From Artocarpus heterophyllus (taxonomy: Eukaryota; Streptophyta; Magnoliopsida; Rosales; Moraceae): a stretch of 64,000 nucleotides of DNA. The notes under the pieces were generated by a model, which made no database searches, was not told where the DNA came from, and was given only the letters and a program-made list of their open reading frames with translations. Of the stretch, positions 1 through 64,000 are shown one piece after another. Position numbers and translations under genes: made by a program. Numbering within the stretch: position 1 is the first letter of the stretch; every line of letters starts with the position of its first letter. Location: assembly GCA_025403435.1 (NCBI GenBank), contig CM046340.1:26601710-26665709 (forward strand), written 5' to 3'.

Positions 1-1221
1 AATCCCTTCCTAGGGGTCAAGACCACCATGGTCTTCCTATGGACCAACGATGGAGGCCTTAGGTCCTCTCTTCGAAAACCTTCTCCCACTTAATCTTTTG
101 AAGTTAAGGTTTTATTTCAAAATTATGCATGAATAATTTTAATATGAGCGGCACTCCCTATTCTATATGACATGTTATCAATATACATGGCAAATCATAT
201 TATAGTGCAGACAAGCAAAGCAATCAAGCAAAGCTACAAGCAAATTAATAATAACCGTAATATTATGGTTTCATCCTAGAGAATAAAAAACTAAGATTAC
301 AAGAGAATAATCGAGACATTTTATCGATTCTTCATCCTTGAATCCTCAAGCTGTATCCTTCTTCATGTAATACCCATCTTCAAGTCTTAAATCCCATATG
401 AATCAAATACTTCATATTTCCAGTCATATCCAAATTTAATGTTTCTCAGAATCGCCTCAAAAATAAAATTAAAATTGTACTGCAAAAATTACACCCTTTC
501 TGGAAATTTTCTAGCTCTCGGTCGGCAGGCCGATCTGGTTGATCGGCCTGTCGGTCATGCTTCATCGGCCTGCCGATCTCAAAGATCGGCCTGCCGACCC
601 ATGAAAGTTTGGCCTGCCGGCAGAGCCAGCCAATTTCTGCCCCACTATCGGCCTATTGAACCACACGTTAGGCCTGCCGATCTGTGACCATCGGCCTGCC
701 GAACTATGATGTCTGGCATGCCGATCGAGCAATAATCCCTCATTCCAGAAAATACAATTTTAATGCAATTTGTTAATTTTGTTTTCAACAATTCAAAAGC
801 ATAAAATTAGAGACTCAAAAAATATATGGGGTCGCCATCATCATTCTTCTAGATCCATCTTCTAGATCCGTCTTCTCCTAATAATTATTTAATTACAAAA
901 TTTTATAAATTTGAAATAAATAATAATTCCTAGACGGAGATGATAGTCTGCCATCTAATTACATGAAAACCTATATACACATTCTAAACTCTAAGGAACC
1001 ATAACCGCTATTAATTAATTAATAAATAATTAAACAATGATTTAATCAACCATAATTAATTAATAAACATTCACCACATAATCCATGACAACAAATATAT
1101 TATATGGAAACTTAGAGTGCCATCTCTCTATAAAATTCAATTCAAGCATAGGAGAGATAAAGATCACAAAATTTATGCATATATCATGATCACAAACTTG
1201 TAAATTTATGTAAAAACCATG
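1..1221 (-). mobile_element. Untranslated leader of copia element A
   Basis: This stretch lies downstream of the primer binding site of element A, which reads on the minus strand and leaves the window at its left edge. It is closely similar to 7290-8320, the leader of element C, including the block with CCACCATG and TATGGACCAA near position 20-50 (compare 7305-7330). No long open frame is visible. It contains the palindrome array at 522-724, described separately. The gag of this copy would start beyond the left edge. The element assignment follows from the adjacent PBS and LTR; the transcript-leader role is inferred from position. Confidence 0.7.
522..724. repeat. Array of ~21-bp-spaced near-palindromes in copia leader
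   Basis: Nine units match TCGGCCTGCCGA, or its reverse complement TCGGCAGGCCGA, with 0-3 mismatches. They start at 522, 543, 565, 586, 609, 648, 669, 691 and 713. Successive starts are 21-23 bp apart, except one gap of 39 bp, roughly two units. Each unit is TCGGC and GCCGA arms around a 2-bp centre (CT or AG). The sequence between units is not conserved. Apparent reading frames through the array (rich in Arg, Pro, Ala, Cys) are a by-product of the repeat. Confidence 0.9.
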
Positions 1222-1233
1222 GCTCTGATACCA
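1222..1233 (-). other. Primer binding site of element A (initiator Met tRNA)
   Basis: On the minus strand this reads TGGTATCAGAGC, the standard complement of the 3' end of plant initiator methionine tRNA. It lies two bases inside the LTR end at 1236, which fixes A as a minus-strand element with its 5' LTR to the right. Confidence 0.92.
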
Positions 1234-1621
1234 TTTGTTGGAAACATGGTACATAGCGGAATTTTCAAAATTTTTCATCAAAGTAATTTTCAAAACACAA
1301 GTTTGACATGCTATATGTATAAATTAGACAGATCTTACTAACCTTTGTGTGAAGAACCTCCGCAACCTGTGTAGAGAAGTAATGTTCTAGAAGAGCCTCA
1401 ACCAACTGGTCTTCTTTGTTATTCTCTATCCATAACCGGAGTGAGTGTAGGCTCACACGTACAGTTCTTCCACCAGTGACTCTCCTTCCAACTGAGAGAG
1501 AGAACCCAAAGCTAGTGTTTGTGATTTGTGAACAAAAGCTCTTAGGGAGTTTTCAGATGCTCACTAGAAGAGTATCACTCTTAATCTCTTAATTAATCTT
1601 AGTAAATCATCAGACTCACTG

Positions 1622-1638
1622 CCTTTTATAGCTATTGG
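1622..1638 (-). promoter_or_regulatory. CAAT and TATA boxes of LTR A
   Basis: On the minus strand CCAATAGC runs directly into CTATAAAAGG. The equivalent positions in related LTRs also carry TATA-like sequence (5572-5580 in B, 8725-8741 in C, 30954-30966 in I), which supports this as the retrotransposon promoter. Transcription would run leftwards. Confidence 0.65.
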
Positions 1639-1749
1639 TCCTGGGGTCAGTCCTTATTAGATTAGGTCTCAAAAACTCAAAACAGAATCAAGTTTGGATT
1701 AATATCTGATAAGATCCACGTAAAAACACGTAATCTTATCGCTCGTTGA

Positions 1750-1782
1750 TCGGCAGGCCGAACACGTCATTCGACAGGCCGA
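1750..1782. repeat. Two-unit palindrome array upstream of LTR A TATA box
   Basis: The units are TCGGCAGGCCGA at 1750 and TCGACAGGCCGA at 1771, 21 bp apart. They lie about 110-160 bp upstream (minus strand) of the TATA box at 1622-1638, so inside U3. Confidence 0.85.
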
Positions 1783-3222
1783 ACTCCCGTGAAAAATCTC
1801 CGCAAATCTTTTATTTTCCACCCGCGATTCTATAGGATAAAGTCTCAGTTTTGATTCAAATAACCCAATAGAGAAGATATCTGATCAAAACAAACTTTAT
1901 CAAGATAATCTCTAAGAAAATAAATCAATTCACAATAATTCTACAAGTTTATCTTGATTTAATTTATCCAAAATTAAATCAACCGATAAACAGACAAGAA
2001 TTATCCGATCCTAATAATTCAACAAGTTTATCTTAAATTAATTTTATTACAAAATTAATTCAACCAATAAACAGACATGAATTATTTGATTCTTACAAAT
2101 TTTAAACCAATCTGATAATTTCGACATAAGTCACCAATTATTGGAAAAGCACGCCGTGTCGTTAGAGGATTTTGTGAGCTAGCAAAGGGGACCAAAATGG
2201 ACCTATAAAGTTCAAGTTCACGATAATTATGAAACCCAATATCCCATATATACATTTCACAACTATCAACTCCAACGCTACTCCACTAAAAGCTTGGAGC
2301 TGCACTCTCAAACTTTATAAAATTACGAAGCTCGTGTAGCTAAGTCTCCATGACATATCAAAATGTATCGTATCCCCATATGATAATCTATAACCGGCTT
2401 AAGGACAAGTTCTGTCTTACCTTCCTGATTATTTTTATTTTACGTTCCATTGTCTCAACATTTGAAAACTTACCATCCAAAGATAGTATACCATTCGGTT
2501 ACACCTATGTATCCAAACTGTTGAGCGCTCCAGTTTTCCAATTACAGGACAACGCATATAAGAGGATATCATTACTCCTAAAGAGGAGCTATGGATTCCA
2601 TATCTATGAATAACAAGTCTACGCTATCAAGAGTCATGCCTCCAACGTACCAGCATGCATACCACTATTGAGATGTGGGAGTCAGCCATTGGCACATCAA
2701 AAGACACAAGTCGAGACAATGGGCCCACTATTCATCTCAGGATTAAGATACAATACAAATGACTGTCTAAAGTGAATCAATTTACCAAGATAGAATTATT
2801 AATCCAAATCAATTCACTTTATGTCCCGATCCAACACATCGTCACCTATGACAACATGCCAATGTTTCTATTCACGGAGTCCAACTCCGATGGTCAATAA
2901 AAACCATCTGCCAATAGGGATATAGACAACATAACAATTTTTACGTGAATAAAGCGCCCAACTTTATTCCCTCGATTGCGGATCATATGTTTTAGATCGT
3001 CACCTTAAGAATCGTGTCTTCTGCATAATCATCCCATCATATGCCCAATTCTTAAGGTTTAGACAGAAAGTCTCAGACTACTGTTTGCTTATCATATATT
3101 CAACAAATATGAACGTAAATAGGACAATATTTGGTATATATAAATGAATAAATTCTTTATTGATAAAAAATATCTCCAAAAACATATTACATTTTTACTC
3201 CTTAGGGCATACATGTCTAACA

Positions 3223-3950: not shown

Positions 3951-3953
3951 CGC

Positions 3954-3963: not shown

Positions 3964-5399
3964 TTGTTAGACATGTATTCCCTAAGAAGTAAAAATGCAA
4001 TAAGTTTTTGGAGACATTTTTATCAATAAAGAATTTATTTATTATTTCTTTATCAAATCTTGTCTTCTTTATGTTCATATTTGTTGAATGTATGTTAAGC
4101 AAACAATAGTCTAAGACTGTCAGTCTAAACCTTTAAGAATTTGGCATATGATGGAGAGATTATGTAGAATACACGATTCTTAAGGTGACGGTCTAAAACA
4201 TAAGATCCATAATTGAGAGAATAAAATTGGGTGCTTTATTCATGTAAAAATTGTTATGTTGTCTATATCCCTTTTGGGAGATCGTTTGTCTTGACCATCG
4301 GAGGACTCCGTGAATAGAAACATTGGCACGTTGTCATAGGTGATGATTTGTTGGATCAGGACATAAAGTGAATTGATTTGGATTAATAATTTTGTCTCGG
4401 CAAATCGATTCACATTAGACAATTATTTGTATTGTATCTAAATCCTAAGATGAATAGTTGGCCTGTTGTCTTGACTTGTGTCTTTTGATGTACCAAAGGA
4501 TGACACCCAATCTTAATAGTGGTATGCATGCTGGTACGTTGGAGGCATTACTTTTGATAGCATAGTCTTGTTATTCATAGATATGGAATCCATAGCTCCT
4601 CTTCAGGAGTAATGATATCCTCTTATATACGCTGTCCTGTAATTGGAAAACTAGAGCACTCAACCATTTGGATACATAGGTGTAACCGAATGGTATGCTG
4701 TCTTTGGATAGTAATTTTTCTGATGGTGAGATAATGGAATGTAAGATAAAAATAATCGGGAAGGTAAGACAGAACTTGTCCTTAAGTTGATTATGGATTA
4801 TCATATGGGGATACGATACACTATGATATGTCATGGAGACTTAGCTATACGGGCTTTGTAATTCTATGTAGTTCGAGAGTGCAGTTCCAAGCTTTTAGTG
4901 GAGTAACGTTGGAGTTGATAATTATGAAATGTATATCTGGGATATTGGGTTTCGTAATTATCAGGAGCTTTAACTATATAGGTCCATTTGGTCCCCTTTG
5001 CTAGCTCACGACATCCTGAAACGATACGGCGTGCTTTTTCAATAATTGGTTACTTATGTCGGATTTATCAAATTGGTTGAAATTTAGAAGAATCAAATAA
5101 TTCATGTCTGTTTATTGGTTGAATTAATTTTGTGATAAAATTAATTCAAGATAAACTTGTTGAAATATTGAGATAGGATAATTATTGTCTGTTTATCAGA
5201 TGATTTAATTTTGGATAAATTAGATCAAGATAAACCTGTAGAATTATTGGGAATTCATTTATTTTCTTAGAGATGATCTAGATAAAGTTGTTTTGATCAG
5301 ATAACTTCTCTATTGGGTTATTTGAATTAAAACTGAGACTTTATCCTATAGATTCTTAGGTGAAAAATAAAAGATTCGAGGAGATTTTTTTATCGGCAG

Positions 5400-5455
5400 T
5401 TTGGCCTGCCGATGGGGCCTATTCGGCCTGCCGATTAGGCTGTTCGGCCTACCGA
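5400..5455. repeat. Three-unit palindrome array in U3 of LTR B
   Basis: Units start at 5400 (TTGGCCTGCCGA), 5423 (TCGGCCTGCCGA) and 5444 (TCGGCCTACCGA), with a half unit TCGGCAG at 5393. Spacing is 23 and 21 bp. The array sits about 120 bp upstream of the TATA-like sequence at 5572, the same position as in LTR A. Confidence 0.85.
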
Positions 5456-5571
5456 TGAGCGAAGGATAAGATCACCCGTTTCCACATAGATCTTATCAGA
5501 TATTGATCCAAACTTGATTCTGTTTCAAATTTTTGAGACCTAATCTGATAAGGACTAACCCTAGGACCAAC

Positions 5572-5580
5572 CTTTATAAG
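5572..5580 (+). promoter_or_regulatory. TATA box of LTR B
   Basis: CTTTATAAG follows a CCAA at 5567 and aligns with the TATA region of LTR A. Moderate support only. Confidence 0.5.
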
Positions 5581-5975
5581 TAGGGAGAAAGTCTTAAGAG
5601 TTACTTAGATCAATTGAGAGATTAAGAGTGATACTCTGCTGGTGAGAATCTGAAAACTCCCTGAGAGCTTTTGTTCTTAAATCACGAACACTAGCTTTGG
5701 GTTCTCTTGATTAGTTGAAAGGAGAGTCATTTGGTGGAAGAGCTGTACGTGTGAGCCCACACTCACTCCAGTCATGGATAGAGAACAGCAAAGAAGACCA
5801 GTTGGTTGAAGCTCTTCTGGAACATTACTTCTCTTCACGTTTTGCGAGGGTTCTTCTGTATACAAAGGTTAGCAAGATATAGTTAATTTATGCATATAGC
5901 ATGTCAAACTTGTGTTTTGAAAAATACTCTAATGAAAAGAGTTTTAAAATTTCGCTGCGCACTCTTTTTCCAACA

Positions 5976-6837: not shown

Positions 6838-6842
6838 TTTAA

Positions 6843-8320
6843 TCTACAATAAAGATTCATACAGCAAATATAAGCAAACATTCCACAACAATTTAGTAAA
6901 ATAACACAAACAAGTAAACATACAATTGTGTTTATATGTCAAAACCTTGAAAAAATCACAACCTTACAACAATAATGCCCAACTCAGAATCCAACAAGCC
7001 GCCTAGGGGAGACTTGCTGAATTCAATTAGGAACATAGATCTCCTCTTATTAATATATGCCATCTAAGACCTGTATGATCTAGCACGTATTAATAATCGT
7101 TTACGTTGGCCATTAATATCATTAACAGAGCTCCTAGGAGAGGTTAGCAACAAAATTAATCTTGAGTGTGTAACCATCGCTTTAATTATTTTATCCATGA
7201 TTTATAATTGCTACCTAGGAGTGTACAATGATACGTCATATAAAAATAAATTATCCCTTTAGAGATCCAATGCAGTACATGATGAAATCCTAGCCCAGGG
7301 GTTTGAACCACCATGTGTCACCTATGGACCAAAAATGGAGGCTGTAGGTCCTCTCTTTGAAAACCTTATCCTACTCAATATTTTAAAAGTTAAGGTTTTA
7401 TATTAACATGCATGAATAATTTTTAATGAGCAGTACTCCCTATTCTATATGGCATGTTATCAGCATACATGGCAAATCATATTATAATGCAGACAAGCAA
7501 AGTAACATGCAAAACCACAAGCAAAATAATAAATAAATAAATAGTCATAATATCATGGTTTCATCTTAGAGAAAAGAAAATAAAAATTAAAAAAATATCA
7601 ATTAAAATATATTATCGATTTTTCAAATCCTTTTTCATATAGCATCCATCTTCTATTCTTCAATCTCTTATAAATCAAAAGGTTTATTTTTTTTATCGTC
7701 AAAAAATTTCATCTTTCTTAGAATTATCTCGAAAACAAAATAAAAAATGCACTAAAAAATGCATCTTTTTTGAAAAACGATCTGCCCTACTGTCGGCCTA
7801 CGGAATTGGAAGTTTGGCCTACTGACCGAGCTGAACTAGCGTTTTTACAAGAAATTATCTTTTAAACTATTTTTTAATTTTATTTTCAACAATTCAAAAA
7901 CATAAAAAATTTACAAGCATAGAAAAAATAGAACTCTTATCATATTTATCTTCTAGATCTGTTTTCACTTCGAATGATTATTTAATTGTAGAATTTTACA
8001 AATTTAAAATTAAAATAATAAATCCTAGACAGTGATGATAGACCGCCATCTTATTACATGAAAAAACTTAGTTACACATTCTAACCTCTAAGGAACCATA
8101 ACTGGCATAAATTAACTAATTAATTAATTATTAAATAAAAATTTAATCAACCATAATTAATTAATAAGCATTCACTATATAATCTTATGACAACATTAAT
8201 TATATAGAAACCTTAGAGTGCCAACTCTTTAAAAATTAAATTCAAGCATTGAAGAAAATAAGATCACATAATCCATGTACATAGCATGATCACAAACCCA
8301 TAAAATCAACGTAAAAGACT
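6843..8320 (-). mobile_element. Leader of copia element C
   Basis: This lies between the PBS at 8321 and the gag start at 6837. It is AT-rich and lacks a convincing frame. 7290-8320 matches the leader of element A (1-1221). A degraded pair of palindrome units starts at 7793 (TCGGCCTACGGA) and 7814 (TTGGCCTACTGA), 21 bp apart. Confidence 0.7.
7793..7825. repeat. Decayed two-unit palindrome array in C leader
   Basis: Units at 7793 and 7814, 21 bp apart, each with 2-3 mismatches to TCGGCCTGCCGA. It sits at the place corresponding to the nine-unit array of element A. Confidence 0.65.
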
Positions 8321-9412: not shown

Positions 9413-9505
9413 TGTAACGCCCCCTTACAGACGTTACAGATGTCGTTACATTCATACATTACATACTTATTTGAACTTTAAATGTAAACATAGTTAAGAA
9501 AAACG
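9413..9505 (-). mobile_element. LTR D 3'-terminal fragment (inverted)
   Basis: This is the reverse complement of about 14517-14609, starting TGTAACGCCCCC. It joins pol sequence at about 9506, with ACGTA shared at or near the junction. Confidence 0.88.
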
Positions 9506-11501
9506 TATGAATGGACAGATGCATGCCAGTTTTCAAGAACTGAAGAAGAGGCTAATGACAGCTCCAGTATTGGCTATACCGGAAGGGAATGATGGATTTG
9601 TAATTTATAATGATGCATCTAGGATGGGCCTTGGAGCTGTTTTAATGCAAAATGAAAGGGTGATTGCTTATGCATCAAGACAACTAAAGGATTACGAAAA
9701 GAACTATCCTACTCATGACCTTGAGTTAGCAACAGTCATTTTTGCGTTGAAGATATGGAGGCACTATTTATATGGGGTCCAATGCAAGATCTTCACTGAT
9801 CATCAAAGTCTGAAGTACTTCTTCATGCAAAGAGACTTGAACATGTGACAATGAAGATGGCTAGAGTTGGTGAAGGATAACGATTGTGAAATCCTTTATC
9901 ATCCTGGAAAAGCTAACCGAGTGGCCGATGCTCTAAGTAGGAAGTCAGTTGCCACGTTGATGTCAATGCAAGCAATGTCTCCACCTTTAAGAAAGGAAAT
10001 TCTAGACTTCGGTTGAGAACTTATAGCAGGTCAGCTCTCAGCACTTTCTCTTGCTCTGACGATGTATGATGAAATTCAGAGAAAACAAGATGAAGATGTA
10101 AGTCTTGTAAGGATTAAGCAGGAAATGAAAGGAGGAAAATGTCAAGAGTTTTCTATTGCAGATGACGAACTTTGTACCTCAAAGACCGCTTATGTGTTCC
10201 CAATGTTGATGACTTAAGGGAAAAGATCTTGGCAGAAATTCATGACACTCCTTACTCTATTCATCCAGGTGCAACAAAGATGTATAATGATCTAAGGGGT
10301 AACTTTTGGTGGTTTGGAATGAAACGTGATGTTGCTTTGTATACAAAGAAATGTATGACATGTCAGTAAGTTAAAGCTGAACACCAGAGACCTGGTGGTG
10401 ATTTATAGTCTATCCAAATACCAGAATGGAAATGGGAGAATATAACAATGGATTTCATTATTGGTTTCCCAGAACTATGAACGGTTATGATGCAATTTGG
10501 GTAGTTGTGGATCAACTGACTAAGACGGCGCATTTTGTTCCTATCAAGATCACTTACTCTATAGGACGGTTAGCGAAACTCTATGTTAAGGAGATTGTAC
10601 GACTTCATGGAATTCCCAAGTCAATCATCTCAGATCGTGATGGTAGGTTCATATCTAAGTTTTGGAAGAGTGTACAGACTGCTATGGGAACCAGGCTACA
10701 TTTCAATACAACTTTTCATCCTTAGACAGATGGCCAAACGGAGAGGACAAACTTAATTTTAGAAGATATGCTACGGGCTTGTTCTCTCAATCTTAAGACC
10801 AGCTGGTGTAAAATGTTGCCATTAGCAGAGTTTGCCTACAACAACAGCTTCCAGGCGACACTTGGGATGGCACCTTATGAAGCTCTGTATGGTCGAAAAT
10901 GCAGGTCGCCTATATGTTGGCATGAAGCTGGTGAGAGGAAGTTGATGGAAAGCGTCGATGCTAAAAGAACTAGTTTTGTTAATGAAACTTCTGAGATGAT
11001 AAAGTTGATAAGAAAAAGAATAGAGACCGCTCAAAGCCGTCAGAAGAGTTATGCCGACAAGAGAAAAAGACTCTTAGAATTCACCGTGGGTGAATATGCG
11101 TTTTTGAAAGTTGCACCAATGAAAGGAGTTATGAGGTTTGGAAAGAAAAGCAAGTTAAGCCCTAGATTCATTGTTCCTTATGAAATTGTGAAGCGAATAG
11201 GCAAAGTAGCTTATCAGCTGAGGTTGCCTTCAAAAATGTCTGCAATGCACGATGTGTTTCATGTCTCCATGCTTAAGAAGTATGTCACGGACCCTATGCA
11301 TGTGATTGAGCCACAAGTGATCGAGATACAGGAAGACTTAAGTTATGAAGAAAAGCCAATAGAGATACTCGATCAAAAAACCAAGACCTTGAGGAATAAA
11401 GAAATTCCATTGGTCAAGGTGTTATGGTGAAATCATCAAGTTGAAGAAGCTTCATGGGAACGTGAAGATGACATGGGATCTAAGTATCTGTAGTTATTTT
11501 G
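9506..11501 (+). pseudogene. Ty3 pol 3' half: RNase H and integrase (element D)
   Basis: Translation gives RNase H ([20 protein letters not shown], then [13 protein letters not shown] at about 9611-9650, and TDHQSLKYF at about 9797-9825), the [16 protein letters not shown] end of RNase H (9900-9950), an integrase zinc domain (HPGATKMYNDLRGNFWW to MTCQ, 10262-10368) and the integrase core (DQLTKTAHFVP, SDRDGRFISKFW, LAEFAYNNS). The C-terminal tail EIPLVKVLW...VEEASWE resembles the chromodomain-like tail of Tekay/Del elements. Disabling stops lie near 9847, 10012, 10367, 10408, 10723 and 11428, several at expected Gln (CAG/CAA) or Arg (CGA) codons. The 5' side starts abruptly at the inverted LTR junction. 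Confidence 0.88.
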
Positions 11502-11524
11502 AGTTTTGAGGATGAAACTTTTAT

Positions 11525-11538
11525 AAGGTGAGGAGAAT
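11525..11538 (+). other. Polypurine tract of element D
   Basis: A purine-rich stretch (AAGGTGAGGAGAA) directly precedes the LTR start TGTAACACCC at 11539. Confidence 0.65.
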
Positions 11539-11774
11539 TGTAACACCCACCTATTTTGATGTAACAGATCATATTAAGTTAGTAACAACATTTAGTATAT
11601 TTTATTAATAATTTATGTTGTATGTTATGATTTTTGATCATAATGTTACTAACTATTTATTCTAAGTGTTATTACAGGTGACGATCGCATGGAATCGATG
11701 TGCTCAAGTGTTCATATTAGTTACAATGTATGTTTATTTATGAATGCTATGATATATTACATTTTAAGGACAGT

Positions 11775-11900
11775 TCGGTAGGTCAGACTTTCAAGTTTGG
11801 CAGGCCAAATAGCCTGTTAAAGATCGACAGGCCAATGGAAACCATCGGTAGGCCAGACTTCATGGAATCGGCAATCCGAACTGTGTAGTCGGCAGGCCGA
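11775..11900. repeat. Six-unit palindrome array near LTR D start
   Basis: Units start at 11775, 11797, 11824, 11845, 11868 and 11889. The last is a perfect TCGGCAGGCCGA; the others carry 1-4 changes, mostly C to T or G to A. Spacings are 22, 27, 21, 23 and 21 bp. Confidence 0.85.
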
Positions 11901-14171
11901 TGACAGTTGATGAGCAGTCAGCAGAAATCTCTCCAAATTTATGGCTGAGATAATTACGTTGATTGGGTGTTTTAATGAGATTAATTGGTATAATTATGGA
12001 TTAATTTCCTCATTTAAGGAAATAAAACGTTTGACTTGGCGTTGATTGAATGAAATTGATATCGGTTTACTATTTTTAGAAGGCAAGATATGGTAAGTGA
12101 GACTAATGGTTTTGACTTTTCCTAATTTTCTCTCCTTTTCCATGAAAATTTAGTCTAGATGAGTTCGCAAATTTCTGACTTAATAGAGAGTTTTGACTCC
12201 AAAAAATTTTTACGTTATACTTATTATGTTAAAAAAAAATGTTCTTTTCTTTCTCTATATCTCTCTCTCGTTTTCCCTCTCACTCTCTCTTCTTCACAAA
12301 TTTCTTCCTTGTCTTTTCCTCTATTCTCTTGCAAATAATTGAGACATATTGAGTTTTCTTTGGATGAATTCAAAGGAATTTGAGAAGAATCATTTTGAGG
12401 TAAGGGTTCGTTTTCGGTTTAATTTTGAAATGAAATCTTTCTTGACATGCGACTGCCATATCTTTCTCTACAAAATTCCGTTTACTCTGAATTTTTTAAA
12501 ATGTTATCCATGTATATGTTATGCAATGTTCCTCCAAGTTCCAGGTCGTTTCGATTTTTCTATGATAAGTTATGAATTTTCTATCATCTACCACTCATAG
12601 TAAAATGTTGTTGTTTGGCTATGATGCATGAAAAATGTAATTTTTGTTCAAGGAGTAAATGTGTTTTTGTTTGCTACGAAATTTAGCAAGAATATTCATG
12701 TATATGTTATGTTATGGACTGCAAAGTTTGGTAATGTTTTGATGAATGAATTATGTTTTATGAAATTTCTATGAGATTAGGTCAAGAAAACTGTTTTAAC
12801 AATGTTAATTTTGGACCTTTGTTTTATGTAATGTTTTATATGTTTAAATGATTTTATTGATGATGAAATAATTTTAAGATGTTGAAATGTATGATAATAA
12901 GATGTTAATATGAGTTTTAAAATTAAAATATATGTATTCTAATTGTTAGAAAATGCATGCAACTCACTGTCTGTATATTAAGGGCTATTTTGTTCACATC
13001 TTTTAATGAATGTTGTGCATTGTATGAAATCTTTATGATTAAAGAAAAATCATGGTAATATGTGTATATGATATCTTTGTTCTGCCAATCTGGGTGTTTT
13101 AATTTATGTGTGAATGTTGAGTTATTAAGTTTTTAATTCATGGAGGTTAGAAATATAGTGATGTTGATAATTTTGGTGATTATGGTCATGAAGGCATGTT
13201 ATAAATTATGTTTTAAGAAATGGATGTATGTGTAATGTTTTATGGAATGGATGTATTATTCTATGAATATAAGTATTAATTTTTATTTTGTATCTTTAAA
13301 TGAATAAATGGCATGAACACACTAAGGAATGAGCACATCGAGACCGCGGCGTCGTCACCGATATATATAAGGTTAAGTAAGCTAACTATAAAGGTAAGTA
13401 CATTCTCACCTGCAACATGATAGGTTTTATAAGGTTTGAAATTATGTGCATAATGATAATTATTCTATGATAAATTTTATGATGGTTTCATTTAAAGTTT
13501 TCTTATGAAATATTTTAATGTTCATAAAGTTATGCATGTATAATGATGGCATATTTCAAAGCATGAAAGTATAAATAAGTATATATATGTATCACCTAAA
13601 TAAGTGTTGCACACCAATGTTATAATGTGTTATGATGTCATGTTTGGTTTAGGATTAGCTACCCTTCTTCTTTCATAACGGCGCGCCTACGATGATGATT
13701 ATGGTGCAACACTTAGGCCCTTAAGATAAAATGGAATAAATTTGAATATGGTCAAGTAACGAAAGATATGTTTTTATGAAAATGTGCTTAATGCACTATT
13801 ATGATATGAAGATGATGATGATATTTATGAAATGTTTTTAAATTGTGAGAATTATATGTACTTACTAAGCATTAGCTTATTCAAGTTTATGTCATGTTGC
13901 AGATAAGGGTAAGAAAGTCATAGACTAGGCGGAGGATATAGAAAGGCGTGTGAGCAAAGTATGATGAATTGTAACTGGAAGAACGCCAAGAAGAAAGTTT
14001 ATATGATTTAAATCAAGTTTTACATTTTGGACATATTTATTTTTTAAGTTTTAAGAATACAAGAACTATGTTTTAATATTTTATTTTATCATTTTAAGAA
14101 TTTGATCTTTCGCATTTTGAAAGTTGAATCTGTTTTACAAATTAAGTTTTTTTAAAGTTTTTTTGGCTCTG

Positions 14172-14321
14172 TCGGCCTGTCGAACATCATTGGTCGGCAT
14201 GCCGATGTAAGAATGTTCAGCCTACCGATCACATTTTCGGCCTGCCGAACTTTGAAAGTTTTTAAGCCTGGATTTGCAGAGCCTCTGTCGGCCTGCCGAA
14301 GTCCCAAGTCTGGCCTGCCAA
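14172..14321. repeat. Palindrome array near LTR D end
   Basis: Units start at 14172, 14194, 14217, 14237, 14288 and 14310. Spacings are 22, 23, 20, 51 and 22 bp. These units are mainly in the CT-centred orientation, whereas the array at 11775 of the same LTR is AG-centred. A single LTR therefore carries two separate arrays. Confidence 0.85.
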
Positions 14322-14614
14322 AGTGTGGGAGCATATTGTTTTTAAATGATGTGATGTTTTTTTTATATATAAGTTATGATTTAACAATTTGGTATATTTA
14401 TTTTATTAAAGCAAGTCTATGATTAATTTTAAAGTCTAACTAGATTAATTATGAAATGGAATAAGTTAATGAATGTTGGTGTGAAAAAAAAAGTGTGTAT
14501 GTATGGATCCTGGTTACGTTTTCCTTAACTATGTTTACATTTAAAGTTCAAATAAGTATGTAATGCATGAATGTAACGACATCTGTAACGTCTGTAAGGG
14601 GGCGTTACAGGCTT

Positions 14615-14626
14615 TGGTATCAAAGC
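14615..14626 (+). other. Primer binding site of element D
   Basis: TGGTATCAAAGC, one mismatch from the initiator Met tRNA complement, lies five bases after the LTR end. Confidence 0.85.
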
Positions 14627-14826
14627 GGAAACTTTCGATTACAATTCATATCGCCACACGTCAATCCAGGTTCTCCAAGTAAGTATGTTTTAAAAGAAGA
14701 TGTTTTGATGCAAGTATGATGATAAGATTAAGGTTTAGATGTTTAACGATTATTGATCTAGTAGTGAAAACCTGTCTCATATTAAAGGATTATTTTTAAG
14801 TTCCTAATTCTTTTAGGAGATTAACG

Positions 14827-17388
14827 ATGGACGGTCACAGAAGAATGCAAACGCCCACCCAGACTAACGAAAGGCTTATGACCATGATCGCTGAGCTACA
14901 GAGGCAACTTGAGGAGCAAAGAAGAGAAATTGCTGCATTAAGGGCCAACGGCTAGAATGACGATAGACGAGGCAATGACGTGCCTCCTCCTCCTCCGCAG
15001 CCACCAGTTAATGAAGTTCCAGCTCCTGTTGCTGAACCCAGAGCAGTTAATTAGGAGCCCCTACTGGTCAAATGGAAGAGAGTTAAGCCAGTAGACTTCG
15101 AGGGTTCAAAGGATCCGCTAGCAGCTCAAGGATGGTTTAAGACGATTGAGGCCACCCTAAGACTCATGGGCTTCACGGACAATGAAAAGGTCCTCTGTGC
15201 CTCGTACTGCCTCACCATGGAGGCTAGGATATGGTGGGACAACATCGAACTGAGCAGGAACGTTGAAGAGATGTCACGGGCAGACTTTGTTCACGAGTTT
15301 AACACGAAGTTTTTCCACATGAACATTACAAGGAAGCATTATGAGGAGTTCGAGAATCTACGCCAGGGGGATATGTCAGTCACAGATGTTGTGACAAAGT
15401 TTGACCAGCTAGCCCGTCTATGCCCAGGGATGGTTATGGATGAAAATGAAAGGGTCAGAAGGCTGATCAAGGTCCTCAGGCCTAAAATTGCTGCTATCAT
15501 TGATGGGACAAATCCACCCAGGACTCAAGAGCAGGATGTCATGAGAGCCTAACGTGCGGAGTTCCACTTGTCCAAACTTAGAAGGAACCAGCCATAGTCG
15601 GGCCAACAAGCCAATAATGCAAACAACCAGAACCGCCCTCCACATCGGAACAACAACAACAACAACAACAGTAGCAACAACAACAACCAGAATTGGAGGA
15701 ACAACAAGAGGAAGGGCAATCCTCAAAACCAACAGGGCCCAGACAATAAGAGGCATAATGATGGTTAGCACAACAATAATAACAGGCGGTTTCAACCAGG
15801 TGCCAAATGTGAAAAGAAACATCCAGGGAATGCCGCTTGGGGACAAACCAATGTTTTATTTGTGGCCGTGAAGACCACTTTGTCAAGAACTGCCCCAAAC
15901 TGATGAATGCCAATGCCCCTCAGAGAGCTCCTCCTCAAGCCCAGCTTCATCAGATGCAAGCTTTCCTTGAAGGGCCACTTATCAGTCAAGGAGGAATTGA
16001 AGCCCCACCGGCAAATGCCTGCATTTATGCCATGACAAAAGAACAAGTGGCTGCTGAAGCCTCCAATGTGGTCACAGGTCAGATAACAAGTTTATCTAAT
16101 GATGCTTATGTTCTCTTTGACACAGGTGCTACTCATTCTTTTATATCCACGTCATTTGTTAAAAAGTTAGGGGTTCGTTTAGAGCCTATGAGACAGGGAT
16201 TCACTACGACACTACCCTCCGGGGAAGTGATATTATCTACGCACTGTCTTCGTACAGTACCCCTATGGATTTCTGATAGGGAACTTTTTGTCAACCTCAT
16301 TGTGATCGACATGCATGATTATGATATGATTCTTGGGATGAATTTCCTAAGCAAGTACAATGCTTCTATAGAATGTCAGAAACGAAAAGTGATCTTCCAT
16401 CCTGAAGGTGATCAAAAGTTCGTGTATGTTGGTGAGTCTAGAAAGAAACCCAGCATGTTTTTATCTACAATGAAAGCAAGGAAGTTATTAGCAAGGGGCT
16501 GCATGGGCTATCTGGAGAACATTGTAGACAAAAGCCAAGAAGAAAAGATAAGAATTGAAGATGTACTTGTAGTTCATGAATATACAGAAGTGTTTCCTGA
16601 TGATCTGACAAGTCTACCACCAGAAAGAGAAGTCAAATTTGAGATTGAGCTCGCTCCAGGCACCAAACCGATCTCAAAAGCACCTCATAGAATGGCACCG
16701 GCAGAGTTAAAAGAGCTTCACATGCAATTAAAGGAGCTACTTGACAAAGGCTTCATCAGGCTGAGCTACTCACCATGGGAAGCTCCAGTTTTGTTTGTAA
16801 AAAAGAAAGATGGCTCTATGAGACTCTGCATTGACTACAGAGAGCTGAACAAGGTGACAATCAAGAACAAGTACCCGTTGCCTCGAATCAATGATTTGTT
16901 TGATCAGCTCAAGGGTGCATCTGTGTTTTCAAAGATTGATCTACGGTCAGGTTATCACCAGCTGAAGATTAAAGAAAGAGATATTCCCAAGACTACCTTC
17001 AGGTCGAGGTATGGTCACTATGAATTTGTGGTTATGCCTTTTGGTTTGATGAATGCACCTGCTGCTTTTATGGATTTGATGAACCGGGTATTCAAGGATT
17101 TCCCTGATAAATTTGTTGTTGTATTTATCGATGATATTCTTGTCTATTCAAAGAATCAAGAAGAACATGTGGAGCATTTAAGGATTGTACTGGAGACTTT
17201 AAGAAGGCACCAGCTATATGCAAAGTTCTCCAAGTGTGAGTTTTGGCTTGATAAAGTGTCTTTCTTGGGGCTTGTTATATCGAAGGAAGGGATTATGGTT
17301 GACCCTACTAAAGTAGAGGTTGTTCTCAACTGGAAGCAACTGACAAATGCAAGTGAAATAAGGAGCTTCTTGGGACTAGCAAGATATT
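14827..17388 (+). pseudogene. Ty3 gag, protease and reverse transcriptase (element D)
   Basis: Gag starts at ATG 14827, with an early coiled region (ELQRQLEEQRREIAALRA). The gag core is at 15070-15550 (WFKTIEATLRLMGF, ARIWWDNIE, FNTKFF). An Asn-rich stretch is encoded by an AAC microsatellite near 15650. A zinc knuckle reads [14 protein letters not shown] (about 15855-15895). Protease has [11 protein letters not shown] (about 16117-16150). RT spans about 16650-17388, with [26 protein letters not shown] and FIDDILVY. Stops at 14953, 15052, 15550, 15595 and near 15766, and a one-base deletion in a G run near 15825, disable it. RT stops at LGLARY, where the inverted LTR fragment begins. Compared with element E, about 27 codons are missing between here and the start of 9506-11501. 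Confidence 0.9.
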
Positions 17389-18248
17389 AAACTGAAAATG
17401 AACCCTTACCTCAAAATGATTCTTCTCAAATTCCTTCGAATTCATCCAAAGAAAACTCAATATGTCTCAATTATTTGCAAGCGAATAGAGGAAAAGACAA
17501 GGAAGAAATTCATGAAGAAGAGAGAGTGAGAGGGAAAACGAGAGAGAGATATAGAGAAAGAAAAGAACTTTTTTTTTTAACGTAATAAGCATAACGTAAA
17601 AAATTTTTGGAGTCAAAACTCTCTATTAAGTCAGAAATTTTCTGACTCATCTAGACTAAATTTTCGTGGAGAAGAAGAGAAAATTAGGGAAATTCAAAAC
17701 CATTAGTCTCACTTACCATATCTTGCCTTCTAAAAATAGGAAACCAATATCAATTTCATTCAATCAACGCCAAGTCAAACATTTTATTTCCTTAAATGAG
17801 GAAATTAATCCATAATTATACCAATTAATCTCATTAAAACACCCAATCAACGTAATTATCTCAGCCATAAATTTGGAGAGATTTCTACTGACTGCTCGTC
17901 AGCTGTCATCGGCCTGCCGACTGCACAGTTCGGCCTGCCGATTCCATGAAGCCTGGCCTGCCGATGGTTTCCATCGGCCTGTCGATCTTTAATAAGCTAT
18001 TTGGCCTGCCGAACTGTCCTTAAAATGTAATATATCATAGCATTCATAAATAAACATACATTGTAACTAACATGAACACTTGAGCACATAGATTCCATGC
18101 GATCATCACCTGTCATAACACTTAAAATAAATAGTTTGTAACATTACGTTCAAAAATCATAACATACAACATAAATTATTAATAAAATTTACTTAATATT
18201 GTTACTAACTTAACGTGATCCGTTACATCAAAATGGTTGGGTGTTACA
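17389..18248 (-). mobile_element. LTR D 5'-terminal fragment (inverted)
   Basis: This is the reverse complement of about 11539-12410, ending GTGTTACA at 18248. The left junction is with RT at the AAA of AGATATTAAACTG. It contains five palindrome units at 17909, 17930, 17953, 17974 and 18000, which are better preserved than their counterparts in the full LTR. Confidence 0.88.
17909..18011. repeat. Five-unit palindrome array in inverted LTR D fragment
   Basis: Units start at 17909, 17930, 17953, 17974 and 18000 (spacings 21, 23, 21 and 26 bp). The first two are perfect TCGGCCTGCCGA. It is the reverse complement of the array at 11775-11900. Confidence 0.88.
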
Positions 18249-24417: not shown

Positions 24418-24420
24418 TTT

Positions 24421-36508: not shown

Positions 36509-36781
36509 GGTAACGCCCCGAAATTTATTTAACGTTAATGTAATGTAAATGATGAATTAGTGTGCCATAATTAACGTTTTAACATTAATTAGATTATTTG
36601 GTTGGATTTTGAATTTTTGGTTGTTTTGTTAATTTGATGAATCCAAATGATTTCTTATTGTTTTAAAATGATGTTTTGAGTTTTAAAACACAACAATTTG
36701 TAAAATGTTAAAAATACTCCGTTTTACAAAACCGTAGGCGGTACATGGTTTTCGCACAGTAAAATCGCCCACCGATTTTCT

Positions 36782-36789
36782 CTATTTAA
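36782..36789 (+). promoter_or_regulatory. Probable TATA box of element E
   Basis: CTATTTAA lies about 275 bp into the LTR, just before a CT-rich tract typical of plant leaders. The same site in the 3' LTR reads CTATTTAT. Confidence 0.4.
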
Positions 36790-37366
36790 TTCCTTCCTCT
36801 CTCTCTCTCCTCTCATTCCTCCCGTGACACACTCTCTCTCTCTCTCTCACTCAATTTCTCTCTCGGCAGCACTTTCTCTCTACATCTCTCTCAAATTTTT
36901 GAAACCAAATTCGAGTCCAAGCTTCGGGTTAGCAAGGACGAGGCTCGGGGACGTGATTCGGCAACCGAGGACGCGGATTGAAGCTTCGATTCGAGGTTAG
37001 ATTTGAAATTTTTAAACTTTTTACAAAATTCTCAATTTGGTGCATTTTTGAAATTTAGGGTTGTTTAAGCTTAGAAAACCATGGATTTGAGTTAAATGAA
37101 CTTAGAACAACTAGAATCTAAGCTTAGATTGAAGAAAAATGGATTGAATTCAAGATTTTTCATTTTTCTCCTCATTTTCTCATTTTTGGATTTTTGAGGA
37201 TTTCGAGTTTAAATCTTGTTTAAATGAGTTCAAACATGTTCTAGTATGTTTTTCTATCAACTATGATTGTTTTTCATGCCTGGGATTTGAGAAAAACAGG
37301 TTAGAATCAAGATTTGGATTTTGGGGATCGAGAAACCCGTGGCTGGGATTTCTGGATTTTCCCAGT

Positions 37367-37512
37367 TCGACAGGCCGGAGTGATGATCGGCAGGCCGGTG
37401 TTCTTCCGACCGGCAGGCTGAACCTGGGGAAGTGTTCGGCCGACCGAACTTTGCTTCCAGCAGGCCGAACTGTGCAGTTCGGCAGGCCGAAGCAGGGAGT
37501 CCGGCAGGCCGA
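37367..37512. repeat. Seven-unit palindrome array in 5' LTR of E
   Basis: Units start at 37367, 37387, 37410, 37436, 37457, 37479 and 37501, with spacings of 20, 23, 26, 21, 22 and 22 bp. Units are AG-centred (TCGGCAGGCCGA type). A 47-bp stretch holding two units (about 37420-37466) is absent from the 3' LTR. Confidence 0.9.
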
Positions 37513-38661
37513 CCGAGGCATGGAAAATTTTGTGATTTTTCACCCGTTTTCACTGTTTTGAACCCTGATTTAAATCTCAACCTTATAGAATGATTTTAAA
37601 GGTACAAATGGCACACTAGGACATCATGAAATGGTTTAGTAACATAGAATGTCTCGAACTAGATATTGATCGACTTAGTTTGTATCTAGGATCGTTCGTG
37701 GTTCCGCGGAGCTAACGTATAGCGGACCGGGATTACGGTGTGGGGCACCGGCACGAGTATTGAGGTAGGACTCCTATCCTATTTCTTTGGTAGCCTGGTT
37801 TTGAAATGATTTGGCTTGAAAAGCATTTTTATCAAAATGTTTTCAACGGTTGTTTGAAAATGGATTTATCGGTTATATTTTAATATACCGTGATTTGAAA
37901 TGAACTTCATAATGAATGTAAATGACAACACTCGGTAATTGGGTTTTGAATGATAATGATGATAAACATAAAGGCATGATGCCATATCAGAGATCGGGTC
38001 GTGTAGCGATCGACCTTGGGGGCAGGTCCCGAAACCCAGCTGGGCTACTACGATGGTGATGTCATGATTTGCCAAGGTAAAAGAAAAATGGTGTTTTCGA
38101 TTGTACGAGTAGACTGTTCTGTGTCAGAACGGCTCCACTCAAATTATGTATTTATTTATTTATTTAAGTTTTCTTTTGAGTACTCCTAACAATGAACTGT
38201 TTCTTTAAATTCAATTATTTATAAAACATAGTCCTACTGAGCCTTTCGCTCACGTTTTATTGTTTTAAATTTCCCCCCCTTCTAGGTGGTTTCTCATTTA
38301 GGTTTGGAGAGGATTCTTCGGACCGAACTCAGGAGCATTAGGAGGATTGATTTATATTTTTTATTATTTAAATCAAGGCATGTAAGATTTAACTTTATTT
38401 GTATCTGGACTGTGATTGTATTTATGATATTGTCAGAATCATGTGTGTGCATAAGTTGCGGGTTGTGGAACCCATACTCGCGGTTCTTTATTAATTTTTA
38501 TTACTTGCTTAATATTTATACATCCTTTTATAAAAATGTGGTGGAAATCTTCTTATTTATCATTTAATTTGATTCTTAAACCATTGGTTTCAATTAAATT
38601 CTCTTTTAATTAATCTAAATATTCCGCCACGTCACCTCCCGTACTCTGGGGCGTGACAGAA

Positions 38662-43402: not shown

Positions 43403-45036
43403 TGTAACGCCCTGAAATTTATTTAACGTTAATGTAATGTAAATGATGAATTAGTGTGCCATAATTAACGTTTTAACATTAATTAGATTATTTGGTTGGA
43501 TTTTGAATTTTTGGTTGTTTTGTTAATTTGATGAATCCAAATGATTTCTTATTGTTTTAAAATGATGTTTTGAGTTTTAAAACACAACAATTTGTAAAAT
43601 GTTAAAAATACTCCATTTTGCAAAACCGTGGGCGGTACATGGTTTTCGCACAGTAAAACCGCCCACCGATTTTCTCTATTTATTTCCTTCCTCTCTCTCT
43701 CTCCTCTCATTCCTCCCGTGACACACTCTCTCTCTCTCTCTCACTCAATTTCTCTCTCGGCAGCACTTTCTCTCTACATCTCTCTCAAATTTTTGAAACC
43801 AAATTCGAGTCCAAGCTTCGGGTTAGCAAGGAGGAGGCTCGGGGACGTGATTCGGCAACCGAGGACGCGGATTGAAGCTTCGATTCGAGGTTAGATTCGA
43901 AATTTCTAAACTTTTTACAAAATTTTCAATTTGGTGCATTTTTAAAATTTAGGGTTGTTTAAGCTTAGAAAACCGTGGATTTGAGTTAAATGAACTTAGA
44001 ACAACTAGAATCTAAGCTTAGATTGAAGAAAAACGGATTGAATTCAAGATTTTTCATTTTTCTCCTCATTTTCTCATTTTTGGATTTTTGAGGATTTCGA
44101 GTTTAAATCTTGTTTAAATGAGTTCAAACATGTTCTAGTATGTTTTTCTATCAACTATGATTGTTTTTCATGCCTGGGATTTGAGAAAAACAGGTTAGAA
44201 TCAAGATTTGGATTTTGGGGATCGAGAAACCCGTGGCTGGGATTTCTGGATTCTCCCAGTTCGGCAAGCCGAACTGTGTGTTCGGCAGGCCGAACTGTGT
44301 GTTCGGTAGGCCGGAGTGATGATCGGCACGCCGGTGTTCTTCCGACCGGCAGGCCGAACTGTGCAGTTCGGCAGGCCGAAGCAAGGAGCCCGGCAGGCCG
44401 ACCGAGGCATGAAAAATTTTGTGATTTTTCACCCGTTTTCACTGTTTTGAACCCTGATTTAAATCCCAACCTTATAGAATGATTTTAAAGGTACAAATGG
44501 CACACTAGTACATCATGAAATGGTTTAGTAACATAGAATGTCTCGAACTAGATATTGATCGACTTAGTTTGTATCTAGGATCGTTCGTGGTTCCGCGGAG
44601 CTAACGTATAGCGGACCGGGATTACGGTGTGGGGCACCGGCACGAGTATTGAGGTAGAACTCCTATCCTATTTCTTTAGTAGCCTGGTTTTGAAATGATT
44701 TGGCCTGAAAAGGATTTCTATCAAAATGTTTTCAACGGTTGTTTGAAAATGGATTTATCGGTTATATTTTAATATACCGTGATTTGAAATGAACTTCAGA
44801 ATGAATGTAAATGACAACACTCGGTAATTGGGTTTTGAATGATAATGATGATAAACATAAAGGCATGATGCCATATCAGAGATCGGGTCGTGTAGCGATC
44901 GACCTTGGGGGCAGGTCCCGAAACCCAGTTGGGCCACTACGGTGGTGATGTCATGGTTTGCCTAGGTAAAAGAAAAATGGTGTTTCGATTATACGAGTAG
45001 ACTGTTCTGTGTCAGAACGGCTCCACTCAAATTATG

Positions 45037-45067
<31 letters not shown>

Positions 45068-45558
45068 GTTTTCTTTTGAGTACTCCTAACAATGAACTGT
45101 TTCTTTAAATTCAATTATTTATAAAACATAGTCCTACTGAGCCTTTCGCTCACGTTTTATTGTTTTAAATTTCCCCCCCTTCTAGGTGGTTTCCCATTTA
45201 GGTTTGGAGAGGATTCTTAGGACCGAACTCAGGAGCATTAGGAGGATTGATTTATATTTTGTATTATTTAAATCAAGGCATGTAAGATTTAACTTTATTT
45301 GTATCTGGACTGTGATTGTATTTATGATATTATCAGAACCATGTGTGTGCATAAGTTGTGGGTTGTGGAACCCATACTCACGGTTCTTTATTAATTTTTA
45401 TTACTTGCTTAATATTTATACATCCTTTTATAAAAATGTGGTGGAAATCTTCTTATTTCTCATTTAATTTGATTCTTAAACCATTGGTTTCAATTAAATT
45501 CTCTTTTAATTAATCTAAATATTCCACCACGTCACTTCCCGTACTCCGGGGCGTGACA
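43403..45558 (+). mobile_element. 3' LTR of element E
   Basis: 2,156 bp, TGTAACGCC to GGGGCGTGACA. The differences from the 5' LTR that I saw are mainly C/T or G/A changes, plus three length changes: 42 bp (two palindrome units) present only here, 47 bp present only in the 5' LTR, and 12 extra bp in the TATT microsatellite at about 45039-45066. Confidence 0.93.
44261..44401. repeat. Seven-unit palindrome array in 3' LTR of E
   Basis: Units start at 44261, 44282, 44303, 44323, 44346, 44368 and 44390 (spacings 21, 21, 20, 23, 22 and 22 bp). The first two are an exact-length 21-bp duplication (unit plus ACTGTGTGT spacer) not found in the 5' LTR. Confidence 0.9.
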
Positions 45559-62990: not shown

Positions 62991-63305
62991 TTTAGGGAAT
63001 CTCGATGCAAATAGAACTCTAAAGAAAAAGAGAAGAACTTCCCAAAGGTCACAGCCTGTCTATGGGTGGTTGCTTTGAAATTAGTACCCGATTAAATCAA
63101 ACTTGAAATAATATTTTCAAAGCAACATATTTCCTCCCCAACCAACAATCATAGAGAGAATAAGTTTTGTAGATCAGTTAAATACCAACCTATAGAGATT
63201 TGAATCACACCAAGTAGAGATTATAAAAGCAGAGGACTGCTTTTACTAACCAATGAGATGAAAGTAATGTCGCAAAGATGATATATAAAAGAATGACAAT
63301 ATATC
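62991..63305. other. Short unassigned stretch between LTR G and LTR J
   Basis: About 315 bp without a recognised gene or element. The last five bases, ATATC, would be the target duplication of LTR J, but the partner is outside the window. Confidence 0.4.
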
Positions 63306-64000
63306 TGTTGGAAAAACCAGTACGCAGCAAAAATTTTAAAATTTTAATCAGAGTATTTTCTAAAACACAAGTTTAGCACACTATATGCATAAATTAACCA
63401 AATCTTACAACCTTGTATGCCAAAGAGCTCCTGCAATTTGTGAAAAGAAAGGCGTTCTAGAAGAGCCTCAACCAACTGGTCTTCTTTGCTATTCTCTCTC
63501 TACGATCGGTATGTATGTAGGCACACCTTTTACAGCTCTTCCCCGATAACTCTCCTTCCAACCAATTGAGAAAACCCAAAACTAACATTCGTGAATTGTG
63601 AACAATAGCACTTCGTGGAGTTTCAGAGACTCACAGACTAAAGTGTTCACTCGTAATTTCTCAACTGATCTAAATAACTTAGAAAACTCACTCCCTGTTT
63701 AAAGGGGTCATCCCATGGTTGGTTATTTTTAGATAAGGCCTCAAAATTTGAATCTAGATCAATATCTGATAAAATCGTGTAAAAATGTATGATCAAATTA
63801 TCGCTCGGTCGGCAGGCTGAACTGGCAGATTGGCCTGTCGAACTTACTCCATCGATCGGCCTGTCGAATTTACAATAAATGATCCCTGTGAATCTTTTAT
63901 TTCCCACCTGAGATTCTTTGGATAGAGCCTCAGTTTTAAATCAAATAACCTAATAGAGAAGTTATCTAATTAAAATAGTCATATCTAGATAATCTCTACA
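63306..64000 (-). mobile_element. Copia LTR J (same family as A, B, C and I), partial
   Basis: It starts TGTTGGAAAAACC at 63306 and matches the 3' part of LTR A (from 1236). No PBS lies to its left, unlike A, C and I, so this is either the 3' LTR of a minus-strand element or a solo LTR. It runs off the right edge. Confidence 0.83.
63809..63867. repeat. Three-unit palindrome array in U3 of LTR J
   Basis: Units start at 63809 (TCGGCAGGCTGA), 63830 (TTGGCCTGTCGA) and 63856 (TCGGCCTGTCGA), with spacings of 21 and 26 bp, at the same LTR position as the arrays in A and B. Confidence 0.82.

What the first reader, a model, noticed from the sequence alone, without database searches (positions are those of the whole stretch)
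522..63867. Arrays of TCGGC-NN-GCCGA near-palindromes phased at ~21-22 bp, shared by unrelated retrotransposon families
I count eleven arrays: 522-724, 1750-1782, 5400-5455, 7793-7825, 11775-11900, 14172-14321, 17909-18011, 29990-30056, 37367-37512, 44261-44401 and 63809-63867. Each is built of a 12-bp near-palindrome with a CT or AG centre. Most successive starts are 20-23 bp apart, about two helical turns, and longer gaps are often near one unit more. The spacers are mostly unrelated, so this is not an ordinary tandem satellite: only the palindrome and its phase are kept. The arrays appear in Ty1/copia LTRs and leaders and in two different Ty3 LTRs, which do not otherwise share sequence. That suggests convergent selection, transfer between families by template switching, or a host factor (a dimeric DNA-binding protein bound on one helix face, or a silencing mark). 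Each unit holds two CG sites, and the GCCGA arm resembles the core of AP2/ERF-type sites; both links are inference. I do not recognise the array as a described element.
Basis: partly seen in the sequence, partly recalled or inferred. Interest (0 to 1): 0.88.

Follow-up and report, generated by a model that had tools for sequence, protein, structure and literature searches.

The report
Shared palindrome arrays in unrelated retrotransposons
Three families of jumping genes (retrotransposons) from two unrelated groups in one genome, apparently a plant's, carry arrays of the same short near-palindromic DNA word about every 21-22 letters, likely docking sites for a shared host protein that would switch them on; closely similar arrays were already known from another retrotransposon group.

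Summary
The window has 52 matches (<=2 mismatches) where 3.7 are expected, 47 of them in the arrays. The host genome (985 Mb) holds 78,652 exact copies against 221 for the backwards control. Exact pairs peak at 20-23 bp (10,616) and 42-44 bp (11,068) but are nearly absent at 30-32 bp (25): the register is a 21.5-bp repeat, not helix face in general. In all five arrays unit arms show 4-15 times fewer transversions than the spacers between them. A CCGAG cap follows the terminal unit at 26 of 86 array ends and 0 of 422 internal sides. Best reading: enhancer-like binding-site arrays for one shared host factor (inferred, factor unknown). The kind is known: the palindromic CGG-CCG repeated motif of Sirevirus LTRs (PMC2829016), described there as Sirevirus-specific. 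Here one such motif is shared by a classic-type copia family and two Ty3 families, which is the new part. AP2/ERF and general helix-face readings are not supported.

The parts
522..724 (-). Array A1, copy 1: 8 units (9 with three mismatches allowed) in the leader (between LTR and gag) of copia family A (element on the - strand)
   Evidence: enclosed by an inverted repeat
7793..7825 (-). Array A1 in a second copy of family A, 2 decayed units
29990..30056 (-). Array A1 in a third copy, decayed units
1750..1782 (-). Array A2, 2 units, in the LTR of family A
5401..5455 (+). Array A2 in the inverted LTR copy, 3 units
63809..63867 (-). Array A2 in a further family A copy, 3 units
1236..3222 (-). LTR of copia family A; primer binding site TGGTATCAGAGC at 1222-1233 (-)
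3965..5975 (+). LTR of copia family A, inverted copy; polypurine tract AGTGGGAG at 3955-3962
11775..11900 (+). Array B1, 5 units from 11797 plus a weak one (four mismatches) at 11775, near the start of the Ty3 family B LTR
14172..14321 (+). Array B2, 6 units, near the end of the same LTR
17909..18012 (-). Array B1 in an inverted, truncated LTR copy, 5 units
11539..14609 (+). LTR of Ty3 family B (bounds read from the sequence printed); primer binding site region from 14615
9413..18248 (.). Rearranged Ty3 family B insertion in a family A copy, 5-bp duplication ATAAC on both sides
37367..37512 (+). Array C in the 5' LTR of a Ty3 element, 7 units
44261..44401 (+). Array C in the 3' LTR of the same element, 7 units
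36509..38658 (+). 5' LTR of Ty3 family C element (2150 bp)
   Evidence: target-site duplication TATCT on both sides of the element
43403..45558 (+). 3' LTR of Ty3 family C element (2156 bp)

Best explanation
Arrays of a 12-bp near-palindrome repeated every 21-22 bp sit in the LTRs or leader of one Ty1/copia and two Ty3 retrotransposon families of this genome, and they likely act as clustered docking sites for one host DNA-binding protein that would drive the elements' transcription. Shown: motif, register, genome-wide abundance, sharing across superfamilies, low transversion rate in the unit arms, preferred AG/CT centre in both orientations, terminal CCGAG cap. Inferred: that a protein binds; that it is a dimer (near-palindrome of 16 bp, GWTCGGCAGGCCGAWC type); that neighbours bind cooperatively two helical turns apart; that binding activates the promoter. 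Selection would keep the units while the element is active; after insertion methylated C would decay to T. Unrelated families would either have converged on the same factor or passed an array between them long ago, the spacers having since turned over.
For: Excess of motif: window, 20 grid stretches of the genome (98 matches against 26 for the backwards control), genome 78,652 against 221. Register. Constraint: transversions in unit arms 4.4-15.2 times below interleaved spacers in 5 of 5 arrays; below matched control windows in 4 of 5 (A1 4.1x, B1 5.7x, B2 5.3x, C 0 of 390 sites; A2 equal). Sequence-specific and not merely foldable: AG/CT centre in 44 of 52 listed units; 56 one-sided changes against 2 complementary two-sided ones. 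Sharing: A is copia (integrase before RVT_2), B and C are Ty3; no flank similarity above controls between families. Precedent: Sirevirus RM clusters in LTRs, proposed as regulatory (PMC2829016 sections 9 and 19).
Against: No binding, expression, methylation or small-RNA data. No known plant factor matched: CRT/DRE core in 7 of 60 arms, LOB-domain core GCGGCG in 0 of 52 units. The genome-wide count is driven by copy number: 13 of 13 arrays in the grid sample and 20 of 20 further loci fall with families A, B or C, so it is not 78,652 independent events. Arrays lie at quite different places in their LTRs (B1 and B2 at about 258 and 2633 of 3071, A2 at about 1440 of 1987, C at 858 of 2150), untidy for one promoter-bound function. 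A2 arms are no more conserved than conserved A2 flanks. The centre is AG/CT in only 61 of 98 matches of the genome sample. Arm asymmetry is weak: 9 changes at positions 4-5 against 1 at their mirrors in 30 units, but 3 against 7 at positions 2 and 11 and 18 against 13 in all; the sign test of 0.02 was on positions picked afterwards.
Confidence: 0.48

Rival explanations
1. The arrays matter as RNA: neighbouring self-complementary units pair into hairpins that feed small-RNA silencing or serve leader RNA functions, as proposed for maize Sirevirus palindromes.
For: Arrays A2, B1, B2 and C (one copy each) fold better than shuffles (z -2.0, -4.1, -2.6, -6.3). The leader array A1 lies in the loop of a long inverted repeat: its 70-base flanks pair far better than shuffles in 11 of 11 copies tested, the twelfth having too short a flank (z -2.8 to -8.1; about 60 stem pairs). 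A2 flanks lean the same way weakly (z -2.2 to 0.1; 11 of 12 below 0). The maize work is described in PMC10760457 (passages).
Against: Of 31 LTR-array copies one has flank-pairing z below -2.5. Within units 56 changes are one-sided and 2 compensated, and both of those could be CG decay. The covariation term of the A1 alignment is unfavourable (+3.7; 9 of 115 pairs with two-sided changes).
Confidence: 0.16
2. A host silencing factor, not an activator, reads the arrays: a sequence-specific protein that brings DNA methylation to them.
For: 44 of 68 changes in the 52 listed units are C-to-T or G-to-A and transitions in arms exceed flanks in 5 of 5 arrays (1.1-2.0x; against matched windows in 4 of 5, B2 being 0.9x), as expected of methylated DNA. 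Three families share the same word.
Against: Elements would be expected to lose such sites, yet transversions are rare in them. Methylation of retrotransposons is not known to need this motif (established knowledge, not searched).
Confidence: 0.16
3. A mobile minisatellite-like module was copied between families (template switching or gene conversion) and is decaying without function.
For: Arrays gain and lose units (the C 5' and 3' LTRs of one element differ); CCGAG cap shared by A1 (both ends), B2, C and one A2 copy: 26 of 86 ends against 0 of 422 internal sides; 4,627 sides of exact units genome-wide; slight excess of spacer similarity between arrays.
Against: Cross-family flanks are no more alike than control windows (best score 33 against 37 in far windows and 34 in shuffles; means 20.5, 19.1, 20.0). 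Neutral decay does not spare unit arms while spacers change.
Confidence: 0.13
4. An element-encoded protein binds the arrays to lift silencing, as VANC proteins do on tandem motifs of VANDAL transposons.
For: VANC targets are described as tandem repeats in non-coding regions that diverge rapidly (abstracts of PMC5735166 and PMC10398659).
Against: The open frames looked at in families A, B and C matched gag-pol domains only (no exhaustive gene search). Sharing of one motif by unrelated families is unlike VANC specificity.
Confidence: 0.06

Closest known systems
Repeated motif (RM) clusters of Sirevirus LTRs (Bousios et al. 2010, PMC2829016; sections 9 and 19 and passages read)
   Same: Short palindrome with CGG-CCG core, many copies clustered in LTRs with diverged flanks, GC- and CpG-rich; ours is CGG-N4-CCG, as are the Citrus, Vitis and Usier motifs in its Table 3
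   Different: There reported as Sirevirus-specific and absent from classic elements, with motifs differing between most elements; here one motif is shared by a classic-type copia family and two Ty3 families, with a 21.5-bp register and a CCGAG cap
Palindrome cis-region of maize Sireviruses (Bousios et al. 2016; not held, known from PMC10760457 passages)
   Same: Palindrome clusters in the LTR; proposed cis-regulatory and small-RNA roles; PMC10760457 reports the same palindrome as the commonest motif of structured regions in Helitrons too, so sharing between unlike elements has a precedent
   Different: Different word (CACCGGACNNNGTCCGGTG); copia and Helitron rather than copia and Ty3
VANC target motifs of VANDAL transposons (abstracts of PMC5735166, PMC10398659)
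   Same: Short motifs arrayed in non-coding transposon DNA, rapid array turnover
   Different: Transposons with their own binding protein; family-specific targets
CRT/DRE (AP2/ERF) sites (recalled core RCCGAC)
   Same: GCCGA arm resembles part of the core
   Different: Core present in 7 of 60 arms only
LOB-domain (LBD) sites (PMC10118128 passages)
   Same: Plant dimeric factors said to discriminate palindromic DNA
   Different: Core GCGGCG absent from 52 of 52 units

Membership tests
Sirevirus repeated motif (RM) | Palindromic unit with CGG-CCG core | tested here: met
   TCGGC-AG/CT-GCCGA; against Table 3
Sirevirus repeated motif (RM) | At least 8 copies per element, clustered in the LTR | tested here: inconclusive
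   Units per array (three mismatches allowed): B1 5-6 and B2 6-10; C 6-9; A2 2-4; A1, in the leader, 7-10 in ten copies and 2-3 in two decayed ones
Sirevirus repeated motif (RM) | Clustered in the upper half of the LTR, upstream of the TATA box | tested here: inconclusive
   C and B1 in the first half, A2 and B2 in the second half, A1 outside the LTR; TATA position not established
Sirevirus repeated motif (RM) | Carried by a Sirevirus (multiple AGGGGGAG polypurine tracts) | tested here: not met
   The window's A copy has AGTGGGAG at 3955, a third-position G-to-T variant that PMC2829016 gives among the commonest in classic elements, and no AGGGGGAG before that LTR; AGGGGGAG 0 in five A-bearing loci, which need not all reach the 3' junction; B and C are Ty3
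Ty1/copia (family A) | gag, integrase, then reverse transcriptase RVT_2 | tested here: met
   copy in L024; fragments in the window itself gave no match above the curated cut-offs
Ty3 (families B, C) | RVT_1 upstream of integrase | tested here: met
   C: (RT 40526, integrase pieces 42002 and 42455). B is rearranged: RVT_1, Ty3 capsid and integrase C-terminal matches present, order not readable in this copy
CRT/DRE (AP2/ERF) site | RCCGAC core | tested here: not met
   7 of 60 arms
LOB-domain site | GCGGCG core | tested here: not met
   0 of 52 units
VANC-type anti-silencing target | Element-encoded binding protein | not tested
   no exhaustive gene search in full-length copies

The most novel reading that the evidence does not exclude
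A single regulatory word, with its centre, its 21.5-bp register and its CCGAG end cap, is a common control code used by retrotransposons of two superfamilies in one genome: one host protein would read it, making it the handle by which unrelated elements exploit, or are policed by, the same factor. The Sirevirus RM would then be one instance of a general code of plant LTR elements, not a Sirevirus peculiarity.
Probability: 0.35. Interest if true: 0.78.

Novelty: new variant of a known kind. Interest (0 to 1): 0.62.

Why it matters
If one host factor reads the same array in unrelated retrotransposon families, it becomes possible to ask directly who controls LTR promoters in a plant, and whether elements converge on that factor or exchange its binding sites. 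With 78,652 exact copies such sites would also be a large sink for that protein and a ready source of new regulatory sites near genes.

Tried and rejected
Rejected: helix-face phasing as a general rule (30-32 bp 25 pairs, 20-23 bp 10,616, 42-44 bp 11,068; 25-27 bp 1,077, many of the listed ones being a few recurring spacers). AP2/ERF and LOB cores. One inserted small element with shared edges: a first look suggested A1 and B2 flanks were related (one 84-base match), but controls did as well; only the five-base cap survived. Simple within-unit RNA pairing. A first divergence test open to misaligned units was replaced. Led nowhere: exact pair scan of viral contigs, 0; LRR fragment search for the host, 1 unnamed hit; papers for the motif letters gave 208 hits, of which only 10 were listed, unrelated by title; the maize 2016 paper and the LOB structure paper are not held. 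Host species not identified; most named top protein hits are plants. Dropped before counts: the five isolated matches are not in the 52-unit list, which adds five units with three mismatches; one A1 copy with a short flank dropped out.

Full report
WHAT IS THERE. The motif TCGGC-NN-GCCGA occurs 52 times with at most two mismatches in the window, where dinucleotide shuffles give 3.7; 47 lie in the arrays and 5 are isolated. 28 of the 37 neighbour distances up to 70 bp are 20-23 bp. Where 'the 52 listed units' are named below, they are the 47 plus five array units with three mismatches.

HOW MANY INDEPENDENT CASES. Self-comparison, element ends and alignments reduce eleven arrays to five positions in three families. 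Family A is Ty1/copia: the window holds two inverted LTRs (1236-3222 minus, 3965-5975 plus) and a primer binding site at 1222-1233; its coding fragments in the window gave no Pfam match above the curated cut-offs, but a copy elsewhere (L024) encodes copia gag, integrase and then RVT_2. It has array A1 in the leader and A2 in the LTR. Family B is Ty3, with B1 near the start and B2 near the end of a 3.1-kb LTR. Family C is a Ty3 element with 2150- and 2156-bp LTRs, TATCT duplications on both sides, and its array at offset 858 in each LTR.

GENOME SCALE. The window lies in an assembly of 985,004,640 bases. Exact TCGGCNNGCCGA: 78,652 places; the same pattern read backwards: 221. In 20 stretches of 10 kb at round coordinates (one mostly N) there are 98 matches with up to two mismatches against 26 backwards, and 46 of 59 distances up to 70 bp are 20-23 bp. 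Exact pairs: 20-23 bp 10,616 (control 3); 25-27 bp 1,077 (control 0); 30-32 bp 25 (control 0); 42-44 bp 11,068 (control 0). So the register is a repeat of about 21.5 bp with its double; three helical turns are avoided. Other distances were not counted genome-wide. These counts mostly reflect copy number: 13 of 13 arrays in the grid sample and 20 of 20 further loci fall with families A, B or C (the 20: 11 with A, 9 with B; one cluster there joined A1 and B2 through a single weak match). Other carriers may exist; I did not tally the genome by family.

THE UNIT. Flanking bases extend the near-palindrome to about GWTCGGCAGGCCGAWC. The centre is AG or CT in 44 of the 52 listed units and in 61 of 98 matches of the genome sample; arrays of either orientation occur. 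Turned to AG, positions 4-5 carry 9 changes and their mirror positions 1 in the 30 units of one copy per site, but positions 2 and 11 go the other way (3 against 7) and the arms total 18 against 13, so arm asymmetry is only a hint. Position 13 is C in 3 of 30, and the CRT/DRE core is in 7 of 60 arms. The four arrays measured (A1, B1, B2, C) have G+C 0.53-0.66 against 0.35 for the window.

CONSTRAINT. With 5 to 12 copies per array (43 in all), transversions per site in unit arms are 0.007-0.040 and in the spacers between them 0.090-0.205, ratios 4.6, 5.2, 11.7, 4.4 and 15.2 for A1, A2, B1, B2 and C. Against windows chosen with the same conservation filter, arms are lower in A1, B1, B2 and C but not in A2. 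Pairs of copies are not independent, so no p-value is given. Transitions in arms are 1.1-2.0 times those in flanks, and 0.9 (B2) to 2.0 times those in matched windows, as methylated CG and CHG sites would decay. Concerted homogenisation should have levelled the spacers as well, and it did not.

EDGES. CCGAG follows the terminal unit at A1 5' 10 of 12, A1 3' 8 of 12, B2 5' 3 of 6, C 3' 4 of 5, A2 3' 1 of 12 and none of the other 39 ends (26 of 86), and 0 of 422 internal sides; genome-wide 4,627 sides of exact units, about 2.9% of twice 78,652. Beyond those five bases, cross-family edges are no more alike than far windows or shuffles. The cap may be an extra half-site or a trace of common origin.

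LEADER HAIRPIN. Only A1 is clearly enclosed in a long inverted repeat: flank pairing z -2.8 to -8.1 in 11 of 11 copies tested; of 31 LTR-array copies one (C in L012) reaches -3.0 and the rest lie above -2.5, A2 leaning weakly negative. The stem is kept in most copies but with little covariation. Arrays themselves fold better than shuffles (z -2.0 to -6.3), as self-complementary units must.

WHAT IS KNOWN. PMC2829016 (sections 9, 19 and passages) describes palindromic repeated motifs in LTRs of 13 Sireviruses, 12 of them with a CGG-CCG core, as Sirevirus-specific. Maize Sirevirus palindromes have been linked to small RNAs, and the same palindrome is reported from maize Helitrons (PMC10760457 passages), so a palindrome shared by unlike elements is not without precedent. 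Family A has an AGTGGGAG tract rather than multiple AGGGGGAG tracts, so by that paper's criterion it is of the classic type. I found no report of one such motif shared by copia and Ty3 elements in searches, which cover only openly licensed papers and of which I saw listings.

JUDGEMENT. The kind is known; the sharing by copia and Ty3 families, the fixed register and the cap are new to my searches. I favour binding-site arrays for one host factor with an activating role (0.48), and leave RNA-structure, silencing, mobile-module and anti-silencing readings open. The protein, its effect and the route by which three families came to share the word are untested.

Noticed in passing
9408-18253: The Ty3 family B insertion has ATAAC duplications on both sides but its interior is rearranged: inverted LTR ends at both edges enclose pol-LTR-gag-pol pieces in the other orientation, as self-integration before insertion could give.
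   Followed up: partly
1-6262: Copia family A: two inverted LTRs, one followed directly by an antisense frame with a weak zinc-knuckle (gag-like) match, the other beside a pol-like fragment; again suggestive of self-integration.
   Followed up: partly
400-860 (-): The copia leader array lies in the loop of a long imperfect hairpin, flank pairing seen in 11 of 11 copies tested.
   Followed up: partly
56014-61264: Inverted and direct repeats; two minus-strand frames (58618-58992, 59077-59478) match Pfam LRR models, resembling resistance-gene pieces.
   Followed up: partly
49019-49312: A 139-base inverted repeat with a 16-base loop, 84% complementary.
   Followed up: no
48717-52833: A further copia-like coding region (gag_2 match, weak integrase-core match) with no units near it; its LTRs were not delimited.
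   Followed up: no
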